64,000 nt of DNA, taken from NCBI GenBank assembly GCA_002189035.1, contig NEEC01000144.1, positions 1 through 64,000 of the forward strand, written 5' to 3'. Source of the DNA: Utricularia gibba. Its lineage: Eukaryota > Streptophyta > Magnoliopsida > Lamiales > Lentibulariaceae. The first letter of the stretch is position 1. Every line of letters begins with the position of its first letter. The translations under genes and the position numbers were made by a program. Below the pieces are notes generated by a model. That model was not told the DNA's origin, ran no database searches, and saw only the letters and a program-made list of their open reading frames with translations. Positions 13,001 to 59,200 of this stretch are shown here, in pieces.

Positions 13001-13010
13001 ATGAGCACCC

Positions 13011-22479: not shown

Positions 22480-22511
22480 TGAGCCCAATGGGGTCCTATT
22501 CGACGAAAATC

Positions 22512-30398: not shown

Positions 30399-30679
30399 GT
30401 GATCCATTTATTAACGTTGGGTTTTCGGCAGCTGCCTACATGGTTTCTGAAGGAAAAGCTTGTCGTTTTTGGTTGGGTGCTTTCGGAACTTCGTTCGGAC
30501 CAATCCGGTCCTATTCGACGAAAATCGTGATGCATTTTTGAAGTTAGGATGTCATGAGCACCCCAAATGGTTTTCTCATCCACAAGCTTTATATTTGAGG
30601 AGGCGCTCTCGAGGGGCACTAGGATCGGGCCGGAGGTCAGGTCGGGCTCGGCCCATAGTCATTTGTAGCCCGGCAAAAA
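30399..30679 (+). repeat. 25-bp-deletion monomer (5 of 9)
   Basis: Junction TTCGTTCGGACCAATCCGG; the preceding centre is shortened to GGTTGGGTGCTTTCGG. It is followed by CTCATCCACAAGC. Only four monomers separate it from the copy at 28866. Confidence 0.85.
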
Positions 30680-34364: not shown

Positions 34365-34384
34365 CGGAGGGGTTTCGGCCCATA
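34365..34384 (+). repeat. Private rearrangement of the third variable window
   Basis: GCCGGAGGGGTTTCGGCCCATAG stands where neighbours have GCCGGAGGTCAGGTCGGGCTCGGCCCATAG. A similar but shorter loss, GGAGGGGTCGGCTCGG, is at about 37130. Confidence 0.7.
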
Positions 34385-36270
34385 GTCATTTGTAGCCCGG
34401 CAAAAAATGTGATCCATTTATTAACGTTGGGTTTTCGGCAGCTGCCTACATGGTTTCTGAAGGAAAAGCTTGTCGTTTTTGGGTGGGTGCTTTGTTGGGA
34501 ACTTCGTCCGGACCCAAGGTTCGGTTCGACTCCTGAGCCCAATCGGGTCCTATTCGACGAAAATCGTGATGCATTTTTTGAAGTTAGGATGTCATGAGCA
34601 CCCCAAATGGTTTTCTGTCCACAAGCTTTATATTTGAGGAGGCGCTCTCGAGGGGCACCAGGATCGGGCCGGAGGTCAGGTCGGGCTCGGCCCCATAGTC
34701 ATTTGTAGCCGGCAAAAAATGTGATCCATTTATTAACGTTGGGTTTTCGGCAGCTGCCTACATGGTTTCTGAAGGAAAAGCTTGTCGTTTTTGGGGTGCT
34801 GTTGTTCGGAACTTCGTCCGGACCCAAGGTTCGGTTCGACTCCTGAGCCCAATCGGGTCCTATTCGACGAAAATCGTGATGCATTTTTGAAGTTAGGATG
34901 TCATGAGCACCCCAAATGGTTTTCTCCCACAGCTTTTTATTTGAGGAGGCGCTCTCGAGGGCACTAGGATCGGCCGGAGGTCGGGTCGAACTCGGGCCCA
35001 TAGTCATTTGTAGCCCGGCAAAAAAAGTGATCCATTTATTAACGTTGGGTTTTCGGCAGCTGCCTACATGGTTTCTGAAGGAAAAGCTTGTCGTTTTTGG
35101 GTGGGTGCTGTTGTTCGGAACTTCGTCCGGACCCAAGGTTCGGTTCGACTCCTGAGCCCAATCGGGTCCTATTCGACGAAAATCGTGATGCATTTTTTGA
35201 AGTTAGGATGTCATGAGCACCCCAAATGGTTTTCTCACCACAAGCTTTATATTTGAGGAGGCGCTCTCGAGGGGCACTAGGATCGGGCCGGAGGTCGGTC
35301 GAACTCGGGCCCATAGTCATTTGTAGCCCGGCAAAAAAGTGATCCATTTATTAACGTTGGGTTTTCGGCAGCTGCCTACATGGTTTCTGAAGGAAAAGCT
35401 TGTCGTTTTTTGGTGGGTGCTTGTTCGGAAATTCGTCCGGACCCAAGGTTCGGTTCGACTCCTGAGCCCAATCGGGTCCTATTCGACGAAAATCGTGATG
35501 CATTTTTTGAAGTTAGGATGTCATGAGCACCCCAAATGGTTTTCTGTCCACAAGCTTTATATTTTGAGGAGGCGCTCTCGAGGGGCACCAGGATCGGGCC
35601 GGAGGTCGGGTCGGCTCGGGCCCATAGTCATTTGTAGCCCGGCAAAAAAGTGATCCATTTATTAACGTTGGGTTTTCGGCAGCTGCCTACATGGTTTCTG
35701 AAGGAAAAGCTTGTCGTTTTTGGGTGGGTGCTTCGTTGGGAACTTCGTCCGGACCCAAGGTTCGGTTCGACTCCTGAGCCAATCGGGTCCTATTCGACGA
35801 AAATCGTGATGCATTTTTGAAGTTAGGATGTCATGAGCACCCCAAATGGTTTTCTCATCCACAAGCTTTATATTTGAGGAGGCGCTCTCGAGGGCACAGG
35901 ATCGGGCCGGAGGTCAGGTCGGGGGCCCATAGTCATTTGTAGCCCGGCAAAAAAAGTGATCCATTTATTAACGTTGGGTTTTCGGCAGCTGCCTACATGG
36001 TTTCTGAAGGAAAAGCTTGTCGTTTTTGGGTGGGTGCTTTTGTTGGGAACTTCGTCCGGACCCAAGGTTCGGTTCGACTCCTGAGCCCAATGGGGTCCTA
36101 TTCGACGAAAATCGTGATGCATTTTTTGAAGTTAGGATGTCATGGCACCCCAAATGGTTTTCTTGTCCACAAGCTTTATATTTGAGGAGGCGCTCTCGAG
36201 GGGCACTAGGATCTGGCCGGAGGTCGGGTCGAACTCGGGCCCATAGTCATTTGTAGCCCGGCAAAAAAAA

Positions 36271-36556
36271 GTGATCCATTTATTAACGTTGGGTTTTCGG
36301 CAGCTGCCTACATGGTTTCTGAAGGAAAAGCTTGTCGTTTTTGGGTGGGTGCTTTCGTTGGGAACTTCGTTCGGACCAATCGGGTCCTATTCGACGAAAA
36401 TCGTGATGCATTTTTGAAGTTAGGATGTCATGAGCACCCCAAATGGTTTTCTCATCCACAAGCTTTATATTTGAGGAGGCGCTCTCGAGGGCACTAGGAT
36501 CGGGCCGGAGGTCGGGTCGGGCTCGGCCCATAGTCATTTGTAGCCCGGCAAAAAAA
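36271..36556 (+). repeat. 25-bp-deletion monomer (6 of 9)
   Basis: Junction TTCGTTCGGACCAATCGGG, keeping the CGGG rather than the CCGG form. Preceded by a TTCGTTGGG centre and followed by CTCATCCACAAGC. Confidence 0.85.
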
Positions 36557-39018
36557 GTGATCCATTTATTAACGTTGGGTTTTCGGCAGCTGCCTACATG
36601 GTTTCTGAAGGAAAAGCTTGTCGTTTTTGGGTGGGTGCTGTTGTTCGGAACTTCGTCCGGACCCAAGGTTCGGTTCGACTCCTGAGCCCAATCGGGTCCT
36701 ATTCGACGAAAATCGTGATGCATTTTTGAAGTTAGGATGTCATGAGCACCCCAAATGGTTTTCTTGTCCACAAGCTTTATATTTGAGGAGGCGCTCTCGA
36801 GGGGCACTAGGATCGGCCGGGCGGAGGTCGGGTCGCTCGGGCCCATAGTCATTGTAGCCCGGCAAAAAAAGTGATCCATTTATTAACGTTGGGTTTTCGG
36901 CACCTGCCTACATGTTTCTGAAGGAAAAGCTTGTCGTTTTTGGGTGGGGTTTGTTGGAAATTCATCGGACCCAAGGTTCGGTTCGACTCCTGAGCCCAAT
37001 CGGGTCCTATTCGACGAAAATCGTGATGCATTTTTTGAAGTTAGGATGTCATGAGCACCCCAAATGGTTTTCTTGTCCACAAGCTTTATATTTGAGGAGG
37101 CGCTCTCGAGGGGCACTAGGATCGGGCCGGAGGGGTCGGCTCGGCCCATAGTCATTTGTAGCCCGGCAAAAAAAGTGATCCATTTATTAACGTTGGGTTT
37201 TCGGCAGCTGCCTACATGGTTTCTGAAGGAAAAGCTTGTCGTTTTTTGGGTGGGTGCTTTGTTGGAACTTCGTCCGGACCCAAGGTTGTTCGACTCCTGA
37301 GCCAATGGGGTCCTATTCGACGAAAATCGTGATGCATTTTTTGAAGTTAGGATGTCATGAGCACCCCAAATGGTTTTCTTGTCCACAAGCTTTATATTTG
37401 AGGAGGCGCTCTCGAGGGCACTAGGATCTGGCCGGAGGTCGGGTCGAACTCGGGCCCATAGTCATTTGTAGCCCGGCAAAAAAAAGTGATCCATTTATTA
37501 ACGTTGGTTTTCGGCAGCTGCCTACATGGTTTCTGAAGGAAAAGCTTGTCGTTTTTGGGTGGGTGCTTTGTTGGGAATTCATCCGGACCCAAGGTTCTGT
37601 CGACTCCTGAGCCCAATCGGGTCCTATTCGACGAAAATCGTGATGCATTTTTTGAAGTTAGGATGTCATGAGCACCCCAAATGGTTTTCTCAACCACAAG
37701 CTTTATATTTGAGGAGGCGCTCTCGAGGGCACTAGGATCGGGCCGGAGGTCGGGGCTCGGGCCCATAGTCATTTGTAGCCCGGCAAAAAAAGTGATCCAT
37801 TTATTAACGTTGGGTTTTCGGCAGCTGCCTACATGGTTTCTGAAGGAAAAGCTTGTCGTTTTTGGGTGGGTGCTGTTGTTCGGAACTTCGTCCGGACCCA
37901 AGGTTCGGTTCGACTCTTGAGCCCAATCGGGTCCTATTCGACGAAAATCGTGATGCATTTTTTGAAGTTAGGATGTCATGAGCACCCCAAATGGTTTTCT
38001 CAACCACAAGCTTTTATTTGAGGAGGCGCTCTCGAGGGGCACTAGGATCTGGCCGGAGGTCGGTCGAACTCGGGCCCATAGTCATTTAGCCGGAAAAAAA
38101 GTGATCCATTTATTAACGTTGGGTTTTCGGCAGCTGCCTACATGGTTTCTGAAGGAAAAGCTTGTCGTTTTTGGGGGGTGCTTTTGGGTTCGTCCGGACC
38201 CAAGGTTCGGTTCGACTCCTGAGCCCAATCGGGTCCTATTCGACGAAAATCGTGATGCATTTTTTGAAGTTAGGATGTCATGAGCACCCCAAATGGTTTT
38301 CTGTCCACAAGCTTTATATTTGAGGAGGCGCTCTCGAGGGGCACTAGGATCGGGCCGGAGGTCGGGTCGGGCTCGGGCCCATAGTCATTTGTAGCCCGGC
38401 AAAAAAAGTGATCCATTTATTAACGTTGGGTTTCGGCAGCTGCCTACATTGTTTCTGAAGGAAAAGCTTGTCGTTTTTGGGTGGGTGCTTTGTTGGGAAC
38501 TTCGTCCGGACCCAAGGTTCGGTTCGACTCCTGAGCCCAATCGGGTCCTATTCGACGAAAATCGTGATGCATTTTTGAAGTTAGGATGTCATGAGCACCC
38601 CAAATGGTTTTCTGTCCACAAGCTTTATATTTGAGGAGGGCGCTCTCGAGGGGCACCTAGGATCGGGCCGGAGGTCAGGTCGGCTCGGCCCATAGTCATT
38701 TGTAGCCGGCAAAAAAAGTGATCCATTATTAACGTTGGGTTTTCGGCAGCTGCCTACATGGTTTCTGAAGGAAAAGCTTGTCGTTTTTGGGTGGGTGCTT
38801 TTGTTGGGAATTCGTCCGGACCCAAGGTTCGGTTCGACTCTGAGCCCAATGGGGTCCTATTCGACGAAAATCGTGATGCATTTTTGAAGTTAGGATGTCA
38901 TGAGCACCCCAAATGGTTTTCTTGTCCACAAGCTTTATATTTGAGGAGGCGCTCTCGAGGCACTAGGATCTGGCCGGAGGTCGGGTCGCCCATAGTCATT
39001 TGTAGCCCGGCAAAAAAA

Positions 39019-39301
39019 GTGATCCATTTATTAACGTTGGGTTTTCGGCAGCTGCCTACATGGTTTTGAAGGAAAAGCTTGTCGTTTTTGGTGGGTGCTT
39101 CATTGGGAACTTCGTTCGACCAATCCGGTCCTATTCGACGAAAATCGTGATGCATTTTTGAAGTTAGGATGTCATGAGCACCCCAAATGGTTTTCTCATC
39201 CACAAGCTTTATATTTGAGGAGGCGCTCTCGAGGGCACTAGGATCGGGCCGGAGGTCGGGTCGGGCTCGGGCCCATAGTCATTTGTAGCCCGGCAAAAAA
39301 A
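39019..39301 (+). repeat. 25-bp-deletion monomer (7 of 9)
   Basis: Junction TTCGTTCGACCAATCCGG, with TTCATTGGG before and CTCATCCACAAGC after. It also has a two-base loss in ATGGTTTTGAAGG. Confidence 0.85.
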
Positions 39302-42110
39302 GTGATCCATTTATTAACGTTGGGTTTTCGGCAGCTGCCTACATGGTTTCTGAAGGAAAAGCTTGTCGTTTTTGGGTGGGTGCTTTGTTCGGAACTTCGT
39401 CCGGACCCAAGGTTCGGTTCGACTCCTGAGCCCAATCGGGTCCTATTCGACGAAAATCGTGATGCATTTTTTGAAGTTAGGATGTCATGAGCACCCCAAA
39501 TGGTTTTCTTGTCCACAAGCTTTATATTTGAGGAGGCGCTCTCGAGGGGCACTAGGATCGGGCCGGAGGTCGGGTCGAACTCGGGCCCATAGTCATTTGT
39601 AGCCCGGCAAAAAAAAGTGATCCATTTATTAACGTTGGGTTTTCGGCAGCTGCCTACATGGTTTCTGAAGGAAAAGCTTGTCGTTTTTGGGTGGGTGCTT
39701 TGTTGGGAACTTCGTCCGGACCCAAGGTTCGGTTCGACTCCTGAGCCCAATGGGGTCCTATTCGACGAAAATCGTGATGCATTTTTTGAAGTTAGGATGT
39801 CATGAGCACCCCAAATGGTTTTCTTGTCCACAAGCTTTATATTTGAGGAGGCGCTCTCGAGGGGCACTAGATCTGGCGGAGGTCGGGTCGAACTCGGGCC
39901 CATAGTCATTTGTAGCCCGGCAAAAAAAAGTGATCCATTTATTAACGTTGGGTTTTCGGCAGCTGCCTACATGGTTTCTGAAGGAAAAGCTTGTCGTTTT
40001 TGGGTGGGTGCTTTTCGTTGGGAAGTTCATCCGGACCCAAGGTTCTGTTCGACTCCTGAGCCCAATGGGTCCTATTCGACGAAAATCGTGATGCATTTTT
40101 TGAAGTTAGGATGTCATGAGCACCCCAAATGGTTTTCTTGTCCACAAGCTTTATATTTGAGGAGGCGCTCTCGAGGGGCACCAGGATCGGGCCGGAGGTC
40201 AGGTCGGGCTCGGCCCATAGTCATTTGTAGCCCGGCAAAAAAGTGATCCATTTATTAACGTTGGGTTTTCGGCAGCTGCCTACATGGTTTCTGAAGGAAA
40301 AGCTTGTCGTTTTTGGGTGGGTGCTTTGTTCGGAACTTCGTCCGGACCCAAGGTTCGGTTCGACTCCTGAGCCCAATCGGGTCCTATTCGACGAAAATCG
40401 TGATGCATTTTTTGAAGTTAGGATGTCATGAGCACCCCAAATGGTTTTCTCAACCACATGCTTTTATTTGAGGAGGCGCTCTCGAGGGGCACTAGGATCT
40501 GGCCGGAGGTCGGTCGAACTCGGGCCCATAGTCATTTGTAGCCCGGCAAAAAAAGTGATCCATTTATTAACGTTGGGTTTTCGGCAGCTGCCTACATGGT
40601 TTCTGAAGGAAAAGCTTGTCGTTTTTGGGTGGGTGCTGTTGTTCGGAACTTCGTCCGGACCCAAGGTTCGGTTCGACTCCTGAGCCCAATCGGGTCCTAT
40701 TCGACGAAAATCGTGATGCATTTTTTGAAGTTAGGATGTCATGAGCACCCCAAATGGTTTTCTCAACCACATGCTTTTTATTTGAGAAGGCGCTCTCGAG
40801 GGGCACTAGGATCTGGCCGGAGGTCAGGTCGAACTCGGGCCATAGTCATTTGTAGCCCGGCAAAAAAAGTGATCCATTTATTAACGTTGGGTTTTCGGCA
40901 GCTGCCTACATGGTTTCTGAAGGAAAAGCTTGTCGTTTTTGGTGGGTGCTGTTGTTCGGAAATTCGTCCGGACCCAAGGTTCGGTTCGACTCCTGAGCCC
41001 AATCGGGTCCTATTCGACGAAATCGTGATGCATTTTGAAGTTAGGATGTCATGAGCACCCCAAATGGTTTTCTCATCCACAAGCTTTATATTTGAGGAGG
41101 CGCTCTCGAGGGGCACTAGGATCGGGCCGGAGTCGGGTCGGGCTCGGGCCCATAGTCATTTGTAGCCCGGCAAAAAAAGTGATCCATTTATTAACGTTGG
41201 GTTTTCGGCAGCTGCCTACATGGTTTCTGAAGGAAAAGCTTGTCGTTTTTGGGAGGGTGCTTTTGTTGGGAACTTCGTCCGGACCCAAGGTTCGGTTCGA
41301 CTCTTGAGCCCAATGGGTCCTATTCGACGAAAATCGTGATGCATTTTTTGAAGTTAGGATGTCATGCACCCCAAATGGTTTTCTTGTCCACAAGCTTTAT
41401 ATTTGAGGAGGCGCTCTCGAGGGGCACTAGGATCGGGCCGGAGGTCAGGTCGGGCTCGGCCCATAGTCATTTGTAGCCCGGCAAAAAATGTGATCCATTT
41501 ATTAACGTTGGGTTTTCGGCAGCTGCCTACATGGTTTCTGAAGGAAAAGCTTGTCGTTTTTTGGGTGGGTGCTGTTGTTGGAACTTCGTCCGGACCCAAG
41601 TTCGGTTCGACTCCTGAGCCCAATCGGGTCCTATTCGACGAAAATCGTGATGCATTTTTTGAAGTTAGGATGTCATGAGCACCCCAAATGGTTTTCTCAA
41701 CACATGCTTTTTATTTGAGGAGGCGCTCTCGAGGGGCACTAGGATCGGGCCGGAGGTCATATCGGCTCGGGCCCATAGTCATTTGTAGCCCGGCAAAAAA
41801 AGTGATCCATTATTAACGTTGGGTTTTCGGCAGCTGCCTACATGGTTTCTGAAGGAAAAGCTTGTCGTTTTTTGGTGGGTGCTTTTTTGGAACTTCGTCC
41901 GGACCCAAGGTTCGGTTCGACTCCTGAGCCCAATGGGTCCTATTCGACGAAAATCGTGATGCATTTTTTGAAGTTAGGATGTCATGAGCACCCCAAATGG
42001 TTTTCTCAACCACAGCTTTTTATTTGAGAGGCGCTCTCGAGGGGCACTAGGATCTGGCCGGAGGTCGGGTCGAACTCGGGCCCATAGTCATTTGTAGCCC
42101 GGCAAAAAAA

Positions 42111-42732
42111 GTGATCCATTTATTAACGTTGGGTTTTCGGCAGCTGCCTACATTGTTTCTGAAGGAAAAGCTTGTCGTTTTTGGGTGGGTGCTTCGTTGG
42201 AAGTTCATCCGGACCCAAGGTTCTGTTCGACTCCTGAGCCCAATCGGGTCCTATTCGACGAAAATCGTGATGCATTTTTGAAGTTAGGATGTCATGAGCA
42301 CCCCAAATGGTTTTCATCCACAAGCTTTATATTTGAGGAGGCGCTCTCGAGGGGCACTAGGATCGGGCCGGAGTCAGGTCGGGCTCGGGCCCATAGTCAT
42401 TTGTAGCCCGGCAAAAAAAAGTGATCCATTTATTAACGTTGGGTTTTCGGCAGCTGCCTACATGGTTTCTGAAGGAAAAGCTTGTCGTTTTGGGTGGGTG
42501 CTGTTGTTGGGAACTTCGTCCGGACCCAAGGTTCGGTTCGACTCCTGAGCCCAATGGGTCCTATTCGACGAAAATCGTGATGCATTTTTGAAGTTAGGAT
42601 GTCATGAGCACCCCAAATGGTTTTCTTGTCCACAAGCTTTATATTTGAGGAGGCGCTCTCGAGGGGCACTAGGATCTGGCCGGAGGTCGGGTCGAACTCG
42701 GGCCCATAGTCATTTGTAGCCCGGCAAAAAAA
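42111..42732 (+). repeat. Example a-b dimer inserted between tetramers (~0.62 kb)
   Basis: One type-a monomer (42111, CATTGTTTCTG, TTCATCC, CTCATCC form) followed by one type-b monomer (42421, CTTGTCC), then directly another type-a at 42733. Similar dimers start at 43968 and 47038. They fit loss or gain of two monomers by unequal exchange in the tetramer array. Confidence 0.7.
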
Positions 42733-45700
42733 GTGATCCATTTATTAACGTTGGGTTTTCGGCAGCTGCCTACATTGTTTCTGAAGGAAAAGCTTGTCGT
42801 TTTTGGGTGGTGCTTGTTGGAATTCGTCCGGACCCAAGGTTCGGTTCGACTCCTGAGCCCAATCGGGTCCTATTCGACGAAAATCGTGATGCATTTTTGA
42901 AGTTAGGATGTCATGAGCACCCCAAATGGTTTTCTCATCCACAAGCTTTATATTTGAGGAGGCGCTCTCGAGGGGCACCAGGATCGGGCCGGAGGTCAGG
43001 TCGGGCTCGGGCCCATAGTCATTTGTAGCCCGGCAAAAAAAGTGATCCATTTATTAACGTTGGGTTTTCGGCAGCTGCCTACATGGTTTCTGAAGGAAAA
43101 GCTTGTCGTTTTTGGGTGGGTGCTTTTGTTGGGAACTTCGTCCGGACCCAAGGTTCGGTTCGACTCCTGAGCCCAATGGGTCCTATTCGACGAAAATCGT
43201 GATGCATTTTTTGAAGTTAGGATGTCATGAGCACCCCAAATGGTTTTCTTGTCCACAAGCTTTATATTTGAGGAGGCGCTCTCGAGGGGCACTAGGATCG
43301 GGCCGGAGGTCAGGTCGGCTCGGCCCATAGTCATTTGTAGCCCGGCAAAAAAGTGATCCATTTATTAACGTTGGGTTTTCGGCACCTGCCTACATGGTTT
43401 CTGAAGGAAAAGCTTGTCGTTTTTGGGTGGGTGCTGTTGTTCGGAACTTCGTCCGGACCCAAGTTCGGTTCGACTCCTGAGCCCAATCGGGTCCTATTCG
43501 ACGAAAATCGTGATGCATTTTTTGAAGTTAGGATGTCATGAGCACCCCAAATGGTTTTCTCAACACATGCTTTTTATTTGAGGAGGCGCTCTCGAGGGGC
43601 ACTAGGATCGGGCCGGAGGTCAGTCGCTCGGGCCCATAGTCATTTGTAGCCCGGCAAAAAAAGTGATCCATTATTAACGTTGGGTTTTCGGCAGCTGCCT
43701 ACATGGTTTCTGAAGGAAAAGCTTGTCGTTTTTGGTGGGTGCTTTTCGGAACTTCGTCCGGACCCAAGGTTCGGTTCGACTCCTGAGCCCAATCGGGTCC
43801 TATTCGACGAAAATCGTGATGCATTTTTTGAAGTTAGGATGTCATGAGCACCCCAAATGGTTTCTCAACACAGCTTTTTATTTGAGAGGCGCTCTCGAGG
43901 GGCACTAGGATCTGGCCGGAGGTCGGGTCGAACTCGGGCCCATAGTCATTTGTAGCCGGCAAAAAAAGTGATCCATTTATTAACGTTGGGTTTTCGGCAG
44001 CTGCCTACATGTTTCTGAAGGAAAAGCTTGTCGTTTTTGGGTGGGTGCTTCGTTGGAAGTTCATCCGGACCCAAGGTTCTGTTCGACTCCTGAGCCCAAT
44101 CGGGTCCTATTCGACGAAATCGTGATGCATTTTTTGAAGTTAGGATGTCATGAGCACCCCAAATGGTTTTCTCATCCACAAGCTTTTATTTGAGGAGGCG
44201 CTCTCGAGGGGCACCGGATCGGGCCGGAATCAGGTCGGGCTCGGGCCCATAGTCATTTGTAGCCCGGCAAAAAAAGTGATCCATTTATTAACGTTGGGTT
44301 TTCGGCAGCTGCCTACATGGTTTCTGAAGGAAAAGCTTGTCGTTTTTGGGGGGTGCTTTGTTGGGAACTTCGTCCGGACCCAAGGTTCGGTTCGACTCTT
44401 GAGCCCAATGGGTCCTATTCGACGAAAATCGTGATGCATTTTTTGAAGTTAGGATGTCATGAGCACCCAAATGGTTTCTTGTCCACAAGCTTTATATTTG
44501 AGGAGGCGCTCTCGAGGGGCACTAGGATCTGGCCGGAGGTCGGGTCGAACTCGGCCCATAGTCATTTGTAGCCCGGCAAAAAAAGTGATCCATTTATTAA
44601 CGTTGGGTTTTCGGCAGCTGCCTACATTGTTTCTGAAGGAAAAGCTTGTCGTTTTTTTGGTGGGTGCTTGTTGGAAGTTCATCCGGACCCAAGGTTCTGT
44701 TCGACTCCTGAGCCCAATCGGGTCCTATTCGACGAAAATCGTGATGCATTTTTGAAGTTAGGATGTCATGAGCACCCCAAATGGTTTTCTCATCCACAAG
44801 CTTTATATTTGAGGAGGCGCTCTCGAGGGGCACCAGGATCGGGCCGGAGTCAGGTCGGCTCGGGCCCATAGTCATTTGTAGCCCGGCAAAAAAAGTGATC
44901 CATTTATTAACGTTGGGTTTTCGGCAGCTGCCTACATGGTTTCTGAAGGAAAAGCTTGTCGTTTTTGGGTGGGTGCTGTTGTTGGGAACTTCGTCCGGAC
45001 CCAAGGTTCGGTTCGACTCCTGAGCCCAATGGGTCCTATTCGACGAAAATCGTGATGCATTTTTTGAAGTTAGGATGTCATGGCACCCCAAATGGTTTTC
45101 TTGTCCACAAGCTTTATATTTGAGGAGGCGCTCTCGAGGGCACTAGGATCTGGCCGGAGGTCGGTCGAACTCGGCCCATAGTCATTTGTAGCCCGGCAAA
45201 AAAAGTGATCCATTTATTAACGTTGGGTTTTCGGCAGCTGCCTACATTGTTTCTGAAGGAAAAGCTTGTCGTTTTTGGGTGGTGCTTGTTGGGAAGTTCA
45301 TCCGGACCCAAGGTTCTGTTCGACTCCTGAGCCCAATCGGGTCCTATTCGACGAAAATCGTGATGCATTTGAAGTTAGGATGTCATGAGCACCCCAAATG
45401 GTTTTCTGAACCACAAGCTTTTTTATTTGAGGAGGCGCTCTCGAGGGCACTAGGATCTGGCCGAGGTCATGTCGAACTCGGGCCCATAGTCATTTGTAGC
45501 CCGGCAAAAAAAGTGATCCATTTACTAACGTTGGGTTTTCGGCAGCTGCCTACATGGTTTCTGAAGGAAAAGCTTGTCGTTTTTGGTGGGTGCTGTTGTT
45601 CGGAACTTCGTCCGGACCCAAGGTTCGGTTCGACTCCTGAGCCCAATCGGGTCCTATTCGACGAAAATCGTGATGCATTTTTGAAGTTAGGATGTCATGA

Positions 45701-45764
45701 GCACCCCAAATGTTTTCTCAACCACAGCTTTTTATTTGAGAGGCGCTCTCGAGGGGCACTAGGA

Positions 45765-45800
45765 TGGCCGGAGGTCAGTGGCCATCATTTAGCCCGCAAA
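45765..45800 (+). repeat. Eroded third variable window with lost CCCATAGTC
   Basis: GATGGCCGGAGGTCAGTGGCCATCATTTAGCCCGC replaces the usual GGAGGTC-G-rich-GGGCCCATAGTCATTTGTAGCCCGGC. About 20 bases are missing in several steps. This is the most damaged R-half end in the window. Confidence 0.7.
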
Positions 45801-48800
45801 AAAAGTGATCCATTTATTAACGTTGGGTTTTCGGCAGCTGCCTACATGGTTTCTGAAGGAAAAGCTTGTCGTTTTTGGGTGGGTGCTGTTGTTCGGAAAT
45901 TCGTCCGGACCCAAGGTTCGGTTCGACTCCTGAGCCCAATCGGGTCCTATTCGACGAAATCGTGATGCATTTTACTAAAGTTAGGATGTCATGAGCACCC
46001 CAAATGGTTTTCTCATCCACAAGCTTTATATTTGAGGAGGCGCTCTCGAGGGGCACCAGGATCGGGCCGGAGTCGGTCGGCTCGGGCCCATAGTCATTTG
46101 TAGCCCGGCAAAAAAAGTGATCCATTTATTAACGTTGGGTTTTCGGCAGCTGCCTACATGGTTTCTGAAGGAAAAGCTTGTCGTTTTTGGAGGGTGCTTT
46201 GTTGGGAACTTCGTCCGGACCCAAGGTTCGGTTCGACTCTGAGCCCAATGGGGTCCTATTCGACGAAAATCGTGATGCATTTTTTGAAGTTAGGATGTCA
46301 TGAGCACCCCAAATGGTTTCTTGTCCACAAGCTTTATATTTGAGGAGGCGCTCTCGAGGGGCACTAGGATCGGGCCGGAGGTCAGGTCGGGCTCGGCCCA
46401 TAGTCATTTGTAGCCCGGCAAAAAAGTGATCCATTTATTAACGTTGGGTTTTCGGCACCTGCCTACATGGTTTCTGAAGGAAAAGCTTGTCGTTTTTGGG
46501 TGGGTGCTTTGTTCGGAACTTCGTCCGGACCCAAGGTTCGGTTCGACTCCTGAGCCCAATCGGGTCCTATTCGACGAAAATCGTGATGCATTTTTTGAAG
46601 TTAGGATGTCATGAGCACCCCAAATTTTTCTCAACACAGCTTTTTATTTGAGGAGGCGCTCTCGAGGGCACTAGGATCGGGCCGGAGGTCATCGGCTCGG
46701 GCCCATAGTCATTTGTAGCCCGGCAAAAAAAGTGATCCATTTATTAACGTTGGGTTTTCGGCAGCTACATGGTTTCTGAAGGAAAAGCTTGTCGTTTTTG
46801 GTGGGTGCTTTGTTGGGAACTTCGTCCGGACCCAAGGTTCGGTTCGACTCCTGAGCCCAATCCGGTCCTATTCGACGAAAATCGTGATGCATTTTTGAAG
46901 TTAGGATGTCATGAGCACCCCAAATGGTTTTCTCAACCACATGCTTTTATTTGAGGAGGCGCTCTCGAGGGGCACTAGGATCTGGCCGGAGGTCGGGTCG
47001 AACTCGGGCCCATAGTCATTTGTAGCCCGGCAAAAAAGTGATCCATTTATTAACGTTGGGTTTTCGGCAGCTGCCTACATGGTTTCTGAAGGAAAAGCTT
47101 GTCGTTTTTGGGTGGGTGCTTGTTGGAATTCGTCCGGACCCAAGGTTCGTTCGACTCCTGAGCCCAATCGGGTCCTATTCGACGAAATCGTGATGCATTT
47201 TTGAAGTTAGGATGTCATGAGCACCCCAAATGGTTTTCTCATCCACAAGCTTTATATTTGAGGAGGCGCTCTCGAGGGGCACCGGATCGGCCGGAGTCAG
47301 GTCGGCTCGGGCCCATAGTCATTTGTAGCCCGGCAAAAAAAGTGATCCATTTATTAACGTTGGGTTTTCGGCAGCTGCCTACATGGTTTCTGAAGGAAAA
47401 GCTTGTCGTTTTTGGGTGGGTGCTGTTGTTGGGAACTTCGTCCGGACCCAAGGTTCGGTTCGACTCCTGAGCCCAATGGGTCCTATTCGACGAAAATCGT
47501 GATGCATTTTTTGAAGTTAGGATGTCATGAGCACCCCAAATGGTTTTCTTGTCCACAAGCTTTATATTTGAGGAGGCGCTCTCGAGGGGCACTAGGATCT
47601 GGCCGGAGGTCGGGTCGAACTCGGGCCCATAGTCATTTGTAGCCCGGCAAAAAAGTGATCCATTTATTAACGTTGGGTTTTCGGCAGCTGCCTACATGGT
47701 TTCTGAAGGAAAAGCTTGTCGTTTTGGTGGGTGCTTGTTGGAATTCGTCCGGACCCAAGGTTCGTTCGACTCCTGAGCCCAATCGGGTCCTATTCGACGA
47801 AAATCGTGATGCATTTTTTGAAGTTAGGATGTCATGAGCACCCCAAATGGTTTTCTCATCCACAAGCTTTATATTTGAGGAGGCGCTCTCGAGGGGCACC
47901 GGATCGGGCCGGAGTCAGGTCGGGCTCGGGCCCATAGTCATTTGTAGCCCGGCAAAAAAAAGTGATCCATTTATTAACGTTGGGTTTTCGGCAGCTGCCT
48001 ACATGGTTTCTGAAGGAAAAGCTTGTCGTTTTTTGGGGGTGCTGTTGTTGGGAACTTCGTCCGGACCCAAGGTTCGGTTCGACTCTGAGCCCAATGGGGT
48101 CCTATTCGACGAAAATCGTGATGCATTTTTTGAAGTTAGGATGTCATGAGCACCCCAAATGGTTTTCTGTCCACAAGCTTTATATTTGAGGAGGCGCTCT
48201 CGAGGGGCACTAGGATCTGGCCGGAGGTCGGGTCGAACTCGGGCCCATAGTCATTTGTAGCCCGGCAAAAAAAGTGATCCATTTATTAACGTTGGGTTTT
48301 CGGCAGCTGCCTACATTGTTTCTGAAGGAAAAGCTTGTCGTTTTTGGGTGGGTGCTTTCGTTGGAATTCGTCCGGACCCAAGGTTCTGTTCGACTCCTGA
48401 GCCCAATCGGGTCCTATTCGACGAAAATCGTGATGCATTTTTGAAGTTAGGATGTCATGAGCACCCCAAATGGTTTTCTGTCCACAAGCTTTTATTTTGA
48501 GAGGCGCTCTCGAGGGCACTAGGATCTGGCCGGAGTCGGGTCGAACTCGGGGCCATAGTCATTTGTAGCCCGGCAAAAAAAGTGATCCATTTATTAACGT
48601 TGGGTTTTCGGCAGCTGCCTACATGGTTTCTGAAGGAAAAGCTTGTCGTTTTTGGGTGGGTGCTGTTGTTCGGAACTTCGTCCGGACCCAAGGTTCGGTT
48701 CGACTCCTGAGCCCAATCGGGTCCTATTCGACGAAAATCGTGATGCATTTTTTGAAGTTAGGATGTCATGAGCACCCCAAATGGTTTTCTCAACCACAAG

Positions 48801-48896
48801 CTTTTTATTTGAGGAGGCGCTCTCGAGGGGCACTAGGATCTGGCCGGAGGTCAGGTCGAACTCGGCCCATAGTCATTTGTAGCCCGGCAAAAAAAA

Positions 48897-50126
48897 GTGA
48901 TCCATTTATTAACGTTGGGTTTTCGGCAGCTGCCTACATGGTTTCTGAAGGAAAAGCTTGTCGTTTTTGGGTGGTGCTGTTGTTCGGAAATTCGTCCGAC
49001 CCAAGGTTCGGTTCGACTCCTGAGCCCAATCGGGTCCTATTCGACGAAAATCGTGATGCATTTTTTGAAGTTAGGATGTCATGAGCACCCCAAATGGTTT
49101 TCTCATCCACAAGCTTTATATTTGAGGAGGCGCTCTCGAGGGGCACCAGGATCGGGCCGGAGTCGGGTCGGGCTCGGGCCCATAGTCATTTGTAGCCCGG
49201 CAAAAAAAGTGATCCATTTATTAACGTTGGGTTTTCGGCAGCTGCCTACATGGTTTCTGAAGGAAAAGCTTGTCGTTTTTGGTGGGTGCTTTTGTTGGGA
49301 ACTTCGTCCGGACCCAAGGTTCGGTTCGACTCCTGAGCCCAATGGGGTCCTATTCGACGAAAATCGTGATGCATTTTTTGAAGTTAGGATGTCATGAGCA
49401 CCCCAAATGGTTTTCTTGTCCACAAGCTTTATATTTGAGGAGGCGCTCTCGAGGGCACTAGGATCGGGCCGAGTCAGGTCGGGCTCGGGCCCATAGTCAT
49501 TTGTAGCCCGGCAAAAAAAGTGATCCATTTATTAACGTTGGGTTTTCGGCAGCTGCCTACATGGTTTCTGAAGGAAAAGCTTGTCGTTTTTGGGTGGGTG
49601 CTGTTGTTCGGAACTTCGTCCGGACCCAAGTTCGGTTCGACTCCTGAGCCCAATCGGGTCCTATTCGACGAAAATCGTGATGCATTTTTTGAAGTTAGGA
49701 TGTCATGAGCACCCCAAATGGTTTTCTCAACACAAGCTTTTTATTTGAGGAGGCGCTCTCGAGGGCACTAGGATCGGGCCGGAGTCAGTCGCTCGGGCCC
49801 ATAGTCATTTGTAGCCCGGCAAAAAAGTGATCCATTTATTAACGTTGGGTTTTCGGCAGCTGCCTACATGGTTTCTGAAGGAAAAGCTTGTCGTTTTTGG
49901 TGGTGCTTTTTTGGAACTTCGTCCGGACCCAAGGTTCGGTTCGACTCCTGAGCCCAATCGGTCCCCGAAAATCGTGATGCATTTTTGAAGTTAGGATGTC
50001 ATGAGCACCCCAAATGGTTTTCTCAACCACAGCTTTTTATTTGAGAGGCGCTCTCGAGGGCACTAGGATCTGGCCGGAGGTCGGGTCGAACTCGGGCCCA
50101 TAGTCATTTGTAGCCCGGCAAAAAAA
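48897..50126 (+). repeat. Example tetrameric higher-order unit (~1.23 kb)
   Basis: Four monomers: a (48897-49207, CTCATCC, GGAGTCGGG), b (49208-49519, CTTGTCC, AATGGGG), c (49520-49826, CTCAACACAAGC with the private CCCAAGTTCGG deletion), d (49827-50126, CTCAACCACAGC, GAGAGGCG). The next unit, 50127-51362, repeats the order a-b-c/d-c/d. Confidence 0.75.
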
Positions 50127-53100
50127 GTGATCCATTTTATTAACGTTGGGTTTTCGGCAGCTGCCTACATTGTTTCTGAAGGAAAAGCTTGTCGTTTTTG
50201 GTGGGTGCTTGTTGGAAGTTCATCCGGACCCAAGGTTCTGTTCGACTCCTGAGCCAATCGGGTCCTATTCGACGAAAATCGTGATGCATTTTTGAAGTTA
50301 GGATGTCATGAGCACCCCAAATGGTTTTCTCATCCACAAGCTTTATATTTGAGGAGGCGCTCTCGAGGGGCACCAGGATCGGGCCGGAGTCAGGTCGGGC
50401 TCGGGCCCATAGTCATTTGTAGCCCGGCAAAAAAAGTGATCCATTTATTAACGTTGGGTTTTCGGCAGCTGCCTACATGGTTTCTGAAGGAAAAGCTTGT
50501 CGTTTTTGGGGGGTGCTTTGTTGGAACTTCGTCCGGACCCAAGGTTCGGTTCGACTCCTGAGCCCAATGGTCCTATTCGACGAAAATCGTGATGCATTTT
50601 TTGAAGTTAGGATGTCATGAGCACCCCAAATGGTTTTCTTGTCCACAAGCTTTATATTTGAGGAGGCGCTCTCGAGGGGCACTAGGATCTGGCCGGAGGT
50701 CGGGTCGAACTCGGCCCATAGTCATTTGTAGCCCGGCAAAAAAAGTGATCCATTTATTAACGTTGGGTTTTCGGCAGCTGCCTACATGGTTTCTGAAGGA
50801 AAAAGCTTGTTTTTGGGGGTGCTTTGTTGGGAATTCGTCCGGACCAAGGTTCGGTTCGACTCCTGAGCCCAATCGGGTCCTATTCGACGAAAATCGTGAT
50901 GCATTTTTTGAAGTTAGGATGTCATGAGCACCCCAAATGGTTTTCTCAACCACAAGCTTTTTATTTGAGGAGGCGCTCTCGAGGGGCACTAGGATCTGGC
51001 CGGAGGTCGGTCGAACTCGGGCCATAGTCATTTGTAGCCCGGCAAAAAAAGTGATCCATTTACTAACGTTGGGTTTTCGGCAGCTGCCTACATGGTTTCT
51101 GAAGGAAAAGCTTGTCGTTTTTGGGTGGGTGCTGTTGTTCGGAACTTCGTCCGGACCCAAGGTTCGGTTCGACTCCTGAGCCCAATCGGGTCCTATTCGA
51201 CGAAAATCGTGATGCATTTTTTGAAGTTAGGATGTCATGAGCACCCCAAATGGTTTTCTCAACACAGCTTTTTATTTGAGGAAGGCGCTCTCGAGGGCAC
51301 TAGGATCTGGCCGGAGGTCAGTCGAACTCGGCCCATAGTCATTTGTAGCCCGGCAAAAAAAAGTGATCCATTTATTAACGTTGGGTTTTCGGCAGCTGCC
51401 TACATGGTTTCTGAAGGAAAAGCTTGTCGTTTTTGGGTGGGTGCTGTTGTTCGGAAATTCGTCCGGACCCAAGGTTCGGTTCGACTCCTGAGCCCAATCG
51501 GTCCTATTCGACGAAATCGTGATGCATTTTTGAAGTTAGGATGTCATGAGCACCCCAAATGGTTTTCTCTCCACAAGCTTTATATTTGAGGAGGCGCTCT
51601 CGAGGGGCACCAGGATCGGGCCGGAGTCGGGTCGGGCTCGGGCCCATAGTCATTTGTAGCCCGGCAAAAAAAGTGATCCATTTATTAACGTTGGGTTTTC
51701 GGCAGCTGCCTACATGGTTTCTGAAGGAAAAGCTTGTCGTTTTTGGGTGGGTGCTTTGTTGGGAACTTCGTCCGGACCCAAGGTTCGGTTCGACTCTGAG
51801 CCCAATGGGTCCTATTCGACGAAAATCGTGATTTTTTGAAGTTAGGATGTCATGAGCACCCCAAATGGTTTTCTTGTCCACAAGCTTTATATTTGAGGAG
51901 GCGCTCTCGAGGGCACTAGGATCGGGCCGGAGGTCAGGTCGCTCGGCCCATAGTCATTTGTAGCCCGGCAAAAAATGTGATCCATTTATTAACGTTGGGT
52001 TTTCGGCACCTGCCTACATGGGTGAAGGAAAAGCTTGTCGTTTTTGGGGTGGTGCTGTTGTTCGGAATTCGTCCGGACCCAAGTTCGGTTCGACTCCTGA
52101 GCCCAATCGGTCCTATTCGAAAAATCGTGATGCATTTTTTTGAAGTTAGGATGTCATGAGCACCCCAAATGGTTTTCTCAACACATGCTTTTTATTTGAG
52201 AGGCGCTCTCGAGGGGCACTAGGATCGGCCGGAGGTCTCGACTCGGGCCCATAGTCATTTGTAGCCCGGCAAAAAAAAGTGATCCATTTATTAACGTTGG
52301 GTTTTCGGCAGCTGCCTACATGGTTTCTGAAGGAAAAGCTTGTCGTTTTTGGTGGGTGCTTTGTTGGAACTTCGTCCGGACCCAAGGTTCGGTTCGACTC
52401 CTGAGCCCAATCCGGTCCTATTCGACGAAAATCGTGATGCATTTTTTGAAGTTAGGATGTCATGAGCACCCCAAATGGTTTTCTCAACCACATGCTTTTT
52501 ATTTGAGGAGGCGCTCTCGAGGGGCACTAGGATCGGCCGGAGGTCGGGTCGCTCGGGCCCATAGTCATTTGTAGCCCGGCAAAAAAAGTGATCCATTTAT
52601 TAACGTTGGGTTTTCGGCAGCTGCCTACATTGTTTCTGAAGGAAAAGCTTGTCGTTTTTGTGGGTGCTTGTTTGGAATTCATCCGGACCCAAGGTTCTGT
52701 TCGACTCCTGAGCCCAATCGGGTCCTATTCGACGAAAATCGTGATGCATTTTTGAAGTTAGGATGTCATGAGCACCCCAAATGGTTTTCTCATCCACAAG
52801 CTTTATATTTGAGGAGGCGCTCTCGAGGGGCACCGGATCGGGCCGGAGTCGGTCGGCTCGGGCCCATAGTCATTTGTAGCCCGGCAAAAAAAGTGATCCA
52901 TTTATTAACGTTGGGTTTTCGGCAGCTGCCTACATGGTTTCTGAAGGAAAAGCTTGTCGTTTTTGGGAGGGTGCTGTTGTTGGAACTTCGTCCGGACCCA
53001 AGGTTCGGTTCGACTCTTGAGCCCAATGGGTCCTATTCGACGAAAATCGTGATGCATTTTTTGAAGTTAGGATGTCATGGCACCCCAAATGGTTTTCTTG

Positions 53101-53201
53101 TCCACAAGCTTTATATTTGAGGAGGCGCTCTCGAGGGCACTAGGATCTGGCCGGAGGTCGGTCGAACTCGGGCCCATAGTCATTTGTAGCCCGGCAAAAA
53201 A

Positions 53202-56200
53202 AGTGATCCATTTATTAACGTTGGGTTTTCGGCAGCTGCCTACATGGTTTCTGAAGGAAAAGCTTGTCGTTTTTGGGTGGGTGCTGTTGTTGGAACTTCG
53301 TCCGGACCCAAGGTTCGGTTCGACTCCTGAGCCCAATGGGTCCTATTCGACGAAAATCGTGATGCATTTTTTGAAGTTAGGATGTCATGAGCACCCCAAA
53401 TGGTTTTCTCATCCACAAGCTTTATATTTGAGGAGGCGCTCTCGAGGGCACAGGATCGGGCCGGAGGTCGGGTCGGGCTCGGCCCATAGTCATTTGTAGC
53501 CCGGCAAAAAAAGTGATCCATTTATTAACGTTGGGTTTTCGGCAGCTGCCTACATGGTTTCTGAAGGAAAAAGCTTGTCGTTTTTGGGTGGGTGCTTTCG
53601 TTGGGAATTCGTCCGGACCCAAGGTTCGGTTCGACTCCTGAGCCCAATGGGGTCCTATTCGACGAAAATCGTGATGCATTTTTTGAAGTTAGGATGTCAT
53701 GAGCACCCCAAATGGTTTTCTTGTCCACAAGCTTTATATTTGAGGAGGCGCTCTCGAGGGGCACCAGGATCGGCCGGAGGTCGGGTCGCTCGGCCCATAG
53801 TCATTTGTAGCCCGGCAAAAAAAGTGATCCATTTATTAACGTTGGTTTTCGGCAGCTGCCTACATGGTTTCTGAAGGAAAAGCTTGTCGTTTTTGGGAGG
53901 GTGCTTTTGTTTGGGAACTTCGTCCGGACCCAAGGTTCGGTTCGACTCTGAGCCCAATGGGGTCCTATTCGACGAAAATCGTGATGCATTTTTTGAAGTT
54001 AGGATGTCATGGGCACCCCAAATGGTTTTCTTGTCCACAAGCTTTATATTTGAGGAGGCGCTCTCGAGGGGCACTAGGATCTGGCCGGAGGTCGGTCGAA
54101 CTCGGGCCCATAGTCATTTGTAGCCCGGCAAAAAAAGTGATCCATTTATTAACGTTGGGTTTTCGGCAGCTGCCTACATGGTTTCTGAAGGAAAAGCTTG
54201 TCGTTTTTGGTAAGGTGCTTTCATTGGGAACTTCGTTCGGACCAATCGGTCCTATTCGACGAAAATCGTGATGCATTTATTGAAGTTAGGATGTCATGAG
54301 CACCCCAAATGGTTTTCTCATCCACAAGCTTTATATTTGAGGAGGCGCTCTCGAAGGCACCGGGATCGGCCGAGGTCGGGTCGGGCTCGGCCCATAGTCA
54401 TTTGTAGCCCGGCAAAAAAAGTGATCCATTTATTAACGTTGGGTTTTCGGCAGCTGCCTACATGGTTTCTGAAGGAAAAGCTTGTCGTTTTTGGGTGGGT
54501 GCTGTTGTTCGGAACTTCGTCCGGACCCAAGGTTCGGTTCGACTCCTGAGCCCAATCGGGTCCTATTCGACGAAAATCGTGATGCATTTTTTTGAAGTTA
54601 GGATGTCATGAGCACCCCAAATGGTTTTCTTGTCCACAAGCTTTATATTTGAGGAGGCGCTCTCGAGGGGCACTAGATCTGGCCGGAGGTCGGGTCGAAC
54701 TCGGCCCATAGTCATTTGTAGCCCCGGCAAAAAAAGTGATCCATTTATTAACGTTGGGTTTTTTCGGCAGCTGCCTACATTGTTTCTGAAGGAAAAGCTT
54801 GTCGTTTTTGGGTGGGTGCTTTGTTGGGAAGTTCATCCGGACCCAAGGTTCTGTTCGACTCCTGAGCCCAATGGGGTCCTATTCGACGAAAATCGTGATG
54901 CATTTTTTGAAGTTAGGATGTCATGAGCACCCCAAATGGTTTTCTTGTCCACAAGCTTTATATTTGAGGAGGCGCTCTCGAGGGCACTAGGATCTGCCGG
55001 AGGTCGGTCGAACTCGGGCCCATAGTCATTTGTAGCCCGGCAAAAAAAGTGATCCATTTATTAACGTTGGGTTTTCGGCAGCTGCCTACATGGTTTCTGA
55101 AGGAAAAGCTTGTCGTTTTTGGGTGGGTGCTTTTGTTGGAACTTCGTCCGGACCCAAGGTTCGGTTCGACTCCTGAGCCCAATGGGTCCTATTCGACGAA
55201 AATCGTGATGCATTTTTTGAAGTTAGGATGTCATGGCACCCCAAATGGTTTTCTTGTCCACAAGCTTTATATTTGAGGAGGCGCTCTCGAGGGGCACCAG
55301 GATCGGGCCGGAGGTCAGGTCGGGCTCGGCCCCATAGTCATTTGTAGCCCGGCAAAAATGTGATCCATTTATTAACGTTGGGTTTTCGGCACCGCCTACA
55401 GTTTGTGAAGGAAAAGCTTGTCGTTTTTGGGTGGGTGCTGTTGTTCGGAACTTCGTCCGGACCCAAGTTCGGTTCGACTCCTGAGCCCAATCGGTCCTAT
55501 TCGACGAAAATCGTGATGCATTTTTTGAAGTTAGGATGTCATGAGCACCCCAAATGGTTTTCTCAACCACATGCTTTTTATTTGAGGAGGCGCTCTCGAG
55601 GGGCACTAGGATCGGGCCGGAGGTCATATCGATCTCGGGCCCATAGTCATTTGTAGCCCGGCAAAAAAAGTGATCCATTTATTAACGTTGGGTTTTCGGC
55701 AGCTGTGGTTTCTGAAGGAAAAGCTTGTCGTTTTTGGGTGGGTGCTTTTTGGGAACTTCGTCCGGACCCAAGGTTCGGTTCGACTCCTGAGCCCAATGGG
55801 GTCCTATTCGACGAAAATGTGATGCATTTTTTGAAGTTAGGATGTTGGCACCAAATGGTTTTCTCAACCACATGCTTTTATTTGAGGAGGCGCTCTCGAG
55901 GGGCACTAGGATCTGGCCGGAGGTCGGTCGAACTCGGGCCCATAGTCATTTGTAGCCCGGCAAAAAAAGTGATCCATTTATTAACGTTGGGTTTTCGGCA
56001 GCTGCCTACATGGTTTCTGAAGGAAAAGCTTGTCGTTTTTGGGTGGGTGCTGTTGTTTCGGAACTTCGTCCGGACCCAAGGTTCGGTTCGACTCCTGAGC
56101 CCAATGGGTCCTATTCGACGAAAATCGTGATGCATTTTTTGAAGTTAGGATGTCATGAGCACCCCAAATGGTTTTCTCAACCACAAGCTTTTATTTGAGG

Positions 56201-59200
56201 AGGCGCTCTCGAGGGGCACTAGGATCTGGCCGGAGGTCAGGTCGAACTCGGGCCTAGTCATTTTGTAGCCCGGCAAAAAAGTGATCCATTTATTAACGTT
56301 GGGTTTTCGGCAGCTGCCTACATGGTTTCTGAAGGAAAAGCTTGTCGTTTTTGGGTGGGTGCTGTTGTTCGGAACTTCGTCCGGACCCAAGGTTCGGTTC
56401 GACTCCTGAGCCCAATCGGGTCCTATTCGACGAAATCGTGATGCATTTTTAAAGTTAGGATGTCATGAGCACCCCAAATGGTTTTCTCATCCACAAGCTT
56501 TATTTGAGGAGGCGCTCTCGAGGGGCACTAGGATCGGGCCGGAGGTCGGGTCGGGCTCGGCCATAGTCATTTGTAGCCCGGCAAAAAAAGTGATCCATTT
56601 ATTAACGTTGGGTTTTCGGCAGCTGCCTACATGGTTTCTGAAGGAAAAGCTTGTCGTTTTTGGGTGGGTGCTTTTGTTGGGAACTTCGTCCGGACCCAAG
56701 GTTCGGTTCGACTCTGAGCCCAATGGGGTCCTATTCGACGAAAATCGTGATGCATTTTTTGAAGTTAGGATGTCATGGGCACCCAAATGGTTTTCTTGTC
56801 CACAAGCTTTATATTTGAGGAGGCGCTCTCGAGGGGCACTAGGATCGGGCCGGAGGTCGGGTCGAACTCGGGCCCATAGTCATTTGTAGCCGGCAAAAAA
56901 TGTGATCCATTTATTAACGTTGGGTTTTTCGGCAGCCTACATGGTTTGTGAAGGAAAAGCTTGTCGTTTTTGGGTGGGTGCTGTTGTTGGGAACTTCGTC
57001 CGGACCCAAGGTTCGGTTCGACTCCTGAGCCCAATCGGGTCCTATTCGACGAAAATCGTGATGCATTTTTTGAAGTTAGGATGTCATGAGCACCAAATGG
57101 TTTTCTCCACAAGCTTTTTATTTGAGGAGGCGCTCTCGAGGGGCACTAGGATCGGGCCGGAGGTCATATCGATCTCGGCCCATAGTCATTTGTAGCCCGG
57201 CAAAAAAAGTGATCCATTATTAACGTTGGGTTTTCGGCAGCTGCCATGGTTTCTGAAGGAAAAGCTTGTCGTTTTTGGTTGGGTGCTTTCATTGGGAACT
57301 TCGTCCGGACCCAAGGTTCGGTTCGACTCCTGAGCCCAATGGGTCCTATTCGACGAAATCGTGATGCATTTTGAAGTTAGGATGTCATGAGCACCCCAAA
57401 TGGTTTTCTCAACCACATGCTTTTATTTGAGGAGGCGCTCTCGAGGGGCACTAGGATCTGGCCGGAGGTCGGGTCGAACTCGGCCCATAGTCATTTGTAG
57501 CCCGGCAAAAAAAGTGATCCATTTATTAACGTTGGGTTTTCGGCAGCTGCCTACATGGTTTCTGAAGGAAAAGCTTGTCGTTTTTGGGTGGGTGCTGTTG
57601 TTGGAAATTCGTCCGGACCCAAGGTTTCGTTCGACTCCTGAGCCCAATCGGGTCCTATTCGACGAAAATCGTGATGCATTTTTTGAAGTTAGGATGTCAT
57701 GAGCACCCAAATGGTTTTCTCAACCACAAGCTTTATATTTGAGGAGGCGCTCTCGAGGGGCACTAGGATCGGGCCGGAGGTCATTCGAACTCGGGCCCAT
57801 AGTCATTTGTAGCCCGGCAAAAAAAGTGATCCATTTATTAACGTTGGGTTTTCGGCAGCTGCCTACATGGTTTCTGAAGGAAAAGCTTGTCGTTTTTGGG
57901 TGGGTGCTTTGTTGGGAACTTCGTCCGGACCCAAGGTTCGGTTCGACTCCTGAGCCCAATCGGGTCCTATTCGACGAAAATCGTGATGCATTTTTGAAGT
58001 TAGGATGTCATGAGCACCCCAAATGGTTTTCTCACCACAAGCTTTATATTTGAGGAGGCGCTCTCGAGGGCACTAGGATCGGCCGGAGGTCGGTCGGGCT
58101 CGGGCCCATAGTCATTTGTAGCCCGGCAAAAAAAGTGATCCATTTATTAACGTTGGGTTTTCGGCAGCTGCCTACATGGTTTCTGAAGGAAAAGCTTGTC
58201 GTTTTTGGGTGGGTGCTTTGTTGGAAGTTCGTCCGGACCCAAGGTTCGGTTCGACTCCTGAGCCCAATCGGGTCCTATTCGACGAAAATCGTGATGCATT
58301 TTTGAAGTTAGGATGTCATGAGCACCCCAAATGGTTTTCTCATCCACAAGCTTTATATTTGAGGAGGCGCTCTCGAGGGGCACTAGGATCGGGCCGGAGG
58401 TCAGGTCGGGCTCGGGCCCATAGTCATTTGTAGCCCGGCAAAAAAAGTGATCCATTTATAACGTTGGGTTTTCGGCAGCTGCCTACATGGTTTCTGAAGG
58501 AAAAGCTTGTCGTTTTTGGGTGGGTGCTGTTGTTGGGAACTTCGTCCGGACCCAAGGTTCGGTTCGACTCCTGAGCCCAATGGGGTCCTATTCGACGAAA
58601 ATCGTGATGCATTTTTTGAAGTTAGGATGTCATGAGCACCCCAAATGGTTTTCTTGTCCACAAGCTTTATATTTGAGGAGGCGCTCTCGAGGGGCACTAG
58701 GATCGGCCGGAGGTCGGGTCGATCGGGCCCATAGTCATTTGTAGCCCGGCAAAAAAAGTGATCCATTTATTAACGTTGGGTTTTCGGCAGCTGCCTACAT
58801 GGTTTCTGAAGGAAAAGCTTGTCGTTTTTGGGTGGGTGCTTTGTTGGGAAGTTCATCCGGACCCAAGGTTCGTTCGACTCCTGAGCCCAATCGGGTCCTA
58901 TTCGACGAAAATCGTGATGCATTTTTGAAGTTAGGATGTCATGAGCACCCCAAATGGTTTTCTCAACCACAAGCTTTTTATTTGAGGAGGCGCTCTCGAG
59001 GGCACTAGGATCGGCCGGAGGTCGGGTCGAACTCGGGCCCATAGTCATTTGTAGCCCGGCAAAAAAAGTGATCCATTTATTAACGTTGGGTTTTCGGCAG
59101 CTGCCTACATGGTTTCTGAAGGAAAAGCTTGTCGTTTTTGGGTGGGTGCTTTGTTGGGAACTTCGTCCGGACCCAAGGTTCGGTTCGACTCCTGAGCCCA

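What the first reader, a model, noticed from the sequence alone, without database searches (positions are those of the whole stretch)
40869..53201. Tetrameric higher-order repeat with dimer indels
Monomers with the CTCATCC window recur at spacings of 4, 2, 4, 2, 4, 4, 2, 4, 4, 4, 4 monomers, and are followed by CTTGTCC and then two CTCAAC-type monomers when the spacing is four. This a-b-c-d order with a-b extra dimers is a true higher-order structure over 12 kb, of the kind known from alpha satellite.
Basis: seen in the sequence. Interest (0 to 1): 0.65.

Follow-up and report, generated by a model that had tools for sequence, protein, structure and literature searches.

The report
Octamer higher-order repeat in bladderwort satellite
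A 12-kb stretch of a 311-base plant satellite (very probably from the bladderwort Utricularia gibba) is built from near-identical blocks of about eight repeat copies that have gained or lost pairs of copies, a known kind of satellite evolution found here in a genome whose centromeres have been described as lacking satellites.

Summary
The pattern is real, but the unit was misread. The whole window, and the whole 106-kb contig, is one head-to-tail 311-bp satellite. However, lags 10 (0.983) and 18 (0.984) are stronger. Without the marker region, lag 4 is no longer significant (p=0.17), while lags 8, 10 and 18 are (p=0.001). The unit is an octamer, A1-B1-C1-D1-A2-B2-C2-D2, present as five blocks of 6, 10, 10, 8 and 6 monomers. 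Same-position monomers are 99.3% alike, half-unit partners 98.1%, others 97.2%. C1 and C2 are not sisters, so "a-b-c-d repeated" is only half right. Part of the order recurs on a second contig. Unlike alpha satellite, monomers differ by only ~3%. The host carries the Utricularia/Genlisea COX1 Cys-Cys mark. At least ~1 Mb of this satellite sits on satellite-only contigs; none was seen on a telomere-to-telomere chromosome. A new member of a known kind.

The parts
1..64000 (+). Tandem 311-bp satellite, 208 monomers, 96% identical to consensus, one orientation; continues to the end of the 106,100-bp contig
40881..42744 (+). HOR block 1, six monomers A1 B1 C1 D1 A2 B2 (monomers 133-138); 99.2-99.5% identical to the same six positions of blocks 3, 4 and 5
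42745..45816 (+). HOR block 2, ten monomers A2x B1 C1 D1 A2 B2 A2 B2 C2 D2 (139-148); first monomer is intermediate between A1 and A2
45817..48908 (+). HOR block 3, ten monomers A1 B1 C1 D1 A2 B2 A2 B2 C2 D2 (149-158); 99.0% identical to block 2 over ten monomers; its two A2B2 dimers are 99.8% identical
48909..51374 (+). HOR block 4, the plain octamer A1 B1 C1 D1 A2 B2 C2 D2 (159-166)
51375..53214 (+). HOR block 5, six monomers A1 B1 C1 D1 A2 B2 (167-172); the regular order ends here

Best explanation
This is a local higher-order repeat inside a young, well homogenised 311-bp plant satellite. Random substitutions first marked eight neighbouring monomers. The marked block was then copied in tandem by out-of-register exchange (unequal crossing over, or out-of-register break-induced replication). 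Later exchanges shifted by two monomers, made easier by the likeness of A1B1 and A2B2; these added an A2B2 dimer (decamers) or removed C2D2 (hexamers). The array as a whole is a patchwork of such events of different period and age. Shown: the block structure, its identities, and part of the same order on a second contig. Inferred: the exchange mechanism and its order in time. The satellite's role is not shown; the most likely role is a heterochromatic or (peri)centromeric array on some chromosomes of Utricularia, with the HOR as a by-product of recombination rather than a functional unit.
For: Lag peaks at 8, 10, 16, 18, 20 (sums of 6-, 8- and 10-monomer blocks) in all columns, without the marker, and separately in columns 1-150 and 216-315. 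Same-position identity 0.9928 against 0.981 (half-unit partners) and 0.972 (others); 35 of 39 monomers have their nearest neighbour in the same one of eight classes. Block identities 0.989-0.995. Part of the order, including the intermediate A2x position, recurs on contig C160 (11 monomers in a row, score 23.1, 0 of 500 shuffles reach it, maximum 19.9), so it is not a quirk of one contig's assembly. Elsewhere in the contig: a period-3 run, period-9 structures tagged by a short 283-289-bp monomer, and a 40-monomer (12.4 kb) duplication at distance 186 monomers. The published exchange and BIR models predict such structures (PMC8997354).
Against: Only five blocks, and the eight classes were drawn from the same data; a left-half/right-half Mantel test did not exceed its null (r 0.12, null maximum 0.19), so not every pair of sites is linked. 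C2 is loose (98.1% within class). The assembly is noisy: deletions outnumber insertions 1382 to 79, and contig C103 contains garbled patches. With indels counted, a strict published rule (at most 5 differences over at least 3 monomers; PMC10199239) finds no HOR in any tested region of the contig. Dimer indels could in principle be made by the assembler.
Confidence: 0.82

Rival explanations
1. A true tetramer a-b-c-d repeated, with extra a-b dimers.
For: Marker spacings; lag 4 above lags 3 and 5; A1/A2 98.2% and B1/B2 98.3% are the closest between-class pairs for A and B.
Against: Lag 10 and 18 exceed lag 4; lag 4 loses significance without the marker columns while 8, 10, 18 keep it; C1-C2 96.8% is no more than unrelated pairs, C1 being closer to D2 (98.2%). 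It may describe an older stage (duplication of an A-B-x-y block) now overprinted.
Confidence: 0.1
2. Assembly artefact: a long-read assembler joined overlapping or mis-phased reads of an almost uniform satellite, producing apparent blocks and dimer gains or losses.
For: Unpolished indel noise, garbled patches in C103, every sampled satellite contig is satellite at both ends, i.e. broken by repeats.
Against: Blocks differ from one another by ~0.5-1% in substitutions, so they are not copies of the same reads laid end to end; another contig (C160) carries 11 of the monomers in the same order.
Confidence: 0.08

Closest known systems
Arabidopsis thaliana CEN178 local HORs (Col-CEN, analysed by TRASH; PMC10199239)
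   Same: Nearly uniform plant satellite in which blocks of neighbouring monomers share variants with other blocks; HOR defined by paired blocks rather than discrete monomer classes
   Different: Monomer 311 bp, not 178; CENH3 occupancy not known here; the strict <=5-difference rule is not met because of indel noise
Human alpha-satellite HORs
   Same: Multi-monomer units copied as blocks, with period variants (4-, 7-, 8-mers within an 11-mer array described in PMC8997354)
   Different: Alpha monomers within a HOR are 50-70% identical; here 97%. No array-wide period, no CENP-B box tested, no kinetochore data
Switchgrass centromere HORs containing truncated monomers (PMC4053949)
   Same: HOR units tagged by a shortened monomer, like the 283-289-bp monomers behind the period-9 structures elsewhere in this contig
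   Different: 175-bp family of another plant; truncation here is only ~28 bp

Membership tests
Higher-order repeat (general definition) | Monomers at the same position of different units are much more alike than neighbouring monomers of one unit | tested here: met
   99.3% against 97.2%; lag-1 identity 0.972 is among the lowest, lag 10 0.983
Higher-order repeat (general definition) | Signal present outside the marker used to see it, and above permutation | tested here: met
   Lags 8, 10, 18 p=0.001 with marker columns removed
Tetrameric HOR as described in the finding | Period four at all four positions | tested here: not met
   C1/C2 96.8%; lag 4 p=0.17 without marker
TRASH-type HOR (default rule) | At least 3 consecutive monomer pairs with at most 5 differences, indels counted | tested here: not met
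   0 pairs in 133-172; 6-24 differences per aligned pair, many of them single-base gaps
Alpha-satellite-like HOR array | Strongly diverged monomers (50-70% identical) within a unit, near-identical units | tested here: not met
   Within-unit identity about 97%; threshold from PMC8997354
Centromeric satellite | Bound by the centromeric histone CENH3 / located at primary constrictions | not testable with these tools
   No ChIP or FISH; no exact hit of a conserved 24-mer listed on contigs C1-C102, including C3, which has telomeres at both ends
Utricularia / Genlisea host | Two contiguous cysteines in helix 3 of mitochondrial COX1 | tested here: met
   ...PPSLLLLCCSALVEVGSG... on contig C515; the mark occurs in all Utricularia and in Genlisea sect. 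Recurvatae (PMC11688529)

The most novel reading that the evidence does not exclude
Utricularia gibba, whose centromeres have been described as lacking satellite repeats, does have a megabase-scale, HOR-bearing satellite that serves as the centromere of some chromosomes while others (such as the telomere-to-telomere C3) are free of it: a mixed-centromere karyotype in one of the smallest plant genomes, caught while HORs are just forming.
Probability: 0.2. Interest if true: 0.65.

Novelty: new member of a known kind. Interest (0 to 1): 0.36.

Why it matters
It gives a clear example of an early stage of higher-order repeat formation: units 99% alike made of monomers still 97% alike, with dimer gains and losses between units. 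The host matters too. A 2021 paper on U. gibba states that its putative centromeres lack satellite repeats (PMC8333044), yet what is probably the same genome holds at least ~1 Mb of one satellite on contigs that could not be joined to chromosomes. Whether those arrays are centromeric on some chromosomes is directly testable by FISH and CENH3 ChIP.

Tried and rejected
Rfam SSU search of the genome failed twice; a DNA query found only an rRNA fragment on C255, so an origin in the rDNA spacer was not supported but not excluded. Looked for a junction between the satellite and unique DNA at both ends of 15 satellite contigs and in an irregular stretch of C103: none, only satellite or garbled sequence, so the chromosomal place is unknown. 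Internal duplication or strong dyad in the monomer: best internal shift matches 94 of 315 positions, best inverted match a 29-bp GC-rich one. Long lag runs at 90-106 kb are mostly a block of uniformly high identity (mean 0.985-0.988), not a HOR. Strict TRASH-type counting: uninformative because of indel noise. The original U. gibba long-read genome paper is not held, so whether it already lists this satellite could not be checked.

Full report
What is there. The window is the first 64 kb of contig C130 (106,100 bp) of a 100.1-Mb, 516-contig genome. Tandem Repeats Finder reports one array over the whole window, period 311; the rest of the contig is the same satellite. Wrap-around alignment to a consensus gave 208 monomers in the window, 96% identical to the consensus, all in one orientation. 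Against the consensus there are 1,382 deleted, 79 inserted and 1,167 substituted bases. The excess of deletions looks like residual long-read consensus error, so the comparisons below use substitutions only and skip gaps.

Checking the observation. The marker spacings 4,2,4,2,4,4,2,4,4,4,4 are exactly as written (monomers 133 to 171), with minor exceptions: 137 and 167 have lost bases in the marker, and 147 and 157 do not fit the 'two CTCAAC' rule. Lag identity in monomers 133-172 is 0.9726 at lag 3, 0.9791 at lag 4, 0.9732 at lag 5; in 1-15 kb lag 4 is flat. But lag 10 (0.9833) and lag 18 (0.9835) are higher, with 6, 8, 16 and 20 also raised and lag 2 not raised.

The true unit. Reading the haplotypes at 36 variable sites shows that successive 'tetramers' are of two kinds. 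Labelled A1 B1 C1 D1 and A2 B2 C2 D2, the interval reads: 6-mer (A1B1C1D1A2B2), 10-mer (A2x B1C1D1 A2B2 A2B2 C2D2), 10-mer (A1B1C1D1 A2B2 A2B2 C2D2), 8-mer (A1B1C1D1A2B2C2D2), 6-mer (A1B1C1D1A2B2). Same-position monomers are 99.3% identical, half-unit partners 98.1%, others 97.2%; 35 of 39 monomers have their closest relative in their own class. C1 and C2 are only 96.8% alike, so the second half is not simply a copy of the first. Because the classes were drawn from these data, the label permutation is partly circular; the independent support is the lag test with the marker columns removed, where lag 4 has p=0.17 and lags 8, 10 and 18 have p=0.001, and the repetition of lags 8, 10 and 18 in each flank of the monomer separately. 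A Mantel test between left and right halves was not significant, which I count against complete linkage within monomers.

Is it an assembly product? Contig C160, in reverse orientation (about 45,353-48,677), holds 11 consecutive monomers matching C130 monomers 135-145 at 97.4-99.7% (0 of 500 shuffles as good), including the position of the odd A2x monomer. On both sides the match falls off, so C160 is not simply the same piece. This argues for real order. The noise of the assembly still means dimer gains and losses should be confirmed on single reads.

Surroundings. The interval is one patch of several. Sliding spectra show period 3 at about 12-24 kb, period 9 at about 28-43 kb, and periods 9, 14, 19 and 23 at about 68-92 kb; the last follow a short monomer of 283-289 bp spaced 9 or 5 apart. 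A 40-monomer block (window 445-12,827) recurs at 57,838-70,222, 99.0% against a background of about 97.3%, with two rare short monomers at matching places.

Host and abundance. The genome is a flowering plant: light-harvesting proteins and TTTAGGG telomeres, with contig C3 (5.35 Mb) telomeric at both ends. Its mitochondrial COX1 has the Cys-Cys pair in helix 3, which marks Utricularia and Genlisea section Recurvatae (PMC11688529). With ~100 Mb, the long-read style, and contig C255 of 3,424,836 bp against a published U. gibba contig N50 of 3.4 Mb (PMC5793159), U. gibba is the likely species; this last step is inference. A conserved 24-mer of the satellite has 3,413 hits with up to two mismatches, i.e. 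about 1.06 Mb as a lower bound (count times 311). The listed exact hits start at contig C103, none on C1-C102, and a rarer 26-mer (90 hits) occurs on 15 contigs of 18-136 kb, 773 kb in all, none of the multi-megabase ones. Wherever ends were read, these contigs are satellite at both ends. A paper on U. gibba states that its putative centromeres lack satellite repeats (PMC8333044). The satellite contigs do not contradict that for C3, but they show that an abundant satellite exists somewhere; contamination is not formally excluded because no junction with plant DNA was found.

How it works. The layout is what out-of-register exchange produces: a block marked by substitutions is copied, and later shifts by two monomers, made easier by the likeness of A1B1 and A2B2, add or remove dimers. 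Unequal crossing over and break-induced replication (both reviewed in PMC8997354) fit equally well. Nothing here shows a function for the octamer itself.

Verdict. Real, correctly noticed from sequence alone, wrong by a factor of two in its period, and ordinary in kind: a new member of the class of plant satellite HORs, made somewhat more interesting by its host.

Noticed in passing
window 445-12827 and 57838-64000 (continuing to C130:70222): A 40-monomer, 12.4-kb segmental duplication 186 monomers apart, 99.0% identical against ~97.3% background, sharing short monomers (20/206 and 32/218).
   Followed up: partly
window 6034, 28878, 30411, 36283, 39031, 54149, 63444 and further places to C130:89034: Recurrent short monomers (280-289 bp) with a ~28-bp deletion in the CGTCCGGACCCAAGG...CCCAATC region; beyond the window they are often spaced 9 or 5 monomers apart and tag a period-9 structure.
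   Followed up: partly
window 16815-24849 and C130:90571-106021: A uniform subfamily (mostly CTTGTCC type) at two places, the first with period-3 structure; the two match each other across ~75 kb.
   Followed up: partly
L069 and L070 (C103:17001-34000): Garbled satellite patches, apparently unpolished read sequence, within an otherwise clean array contig.
   Followed up: partly
L041:5509-6173 (C255): A degenerate nuclear fragment with SSU rRNA and an overlapping reverse-strand LSU rRNA piece in a 3.4-Mb contig; no intact rDNA array was found by the one DNA query made.
   Followed up: no
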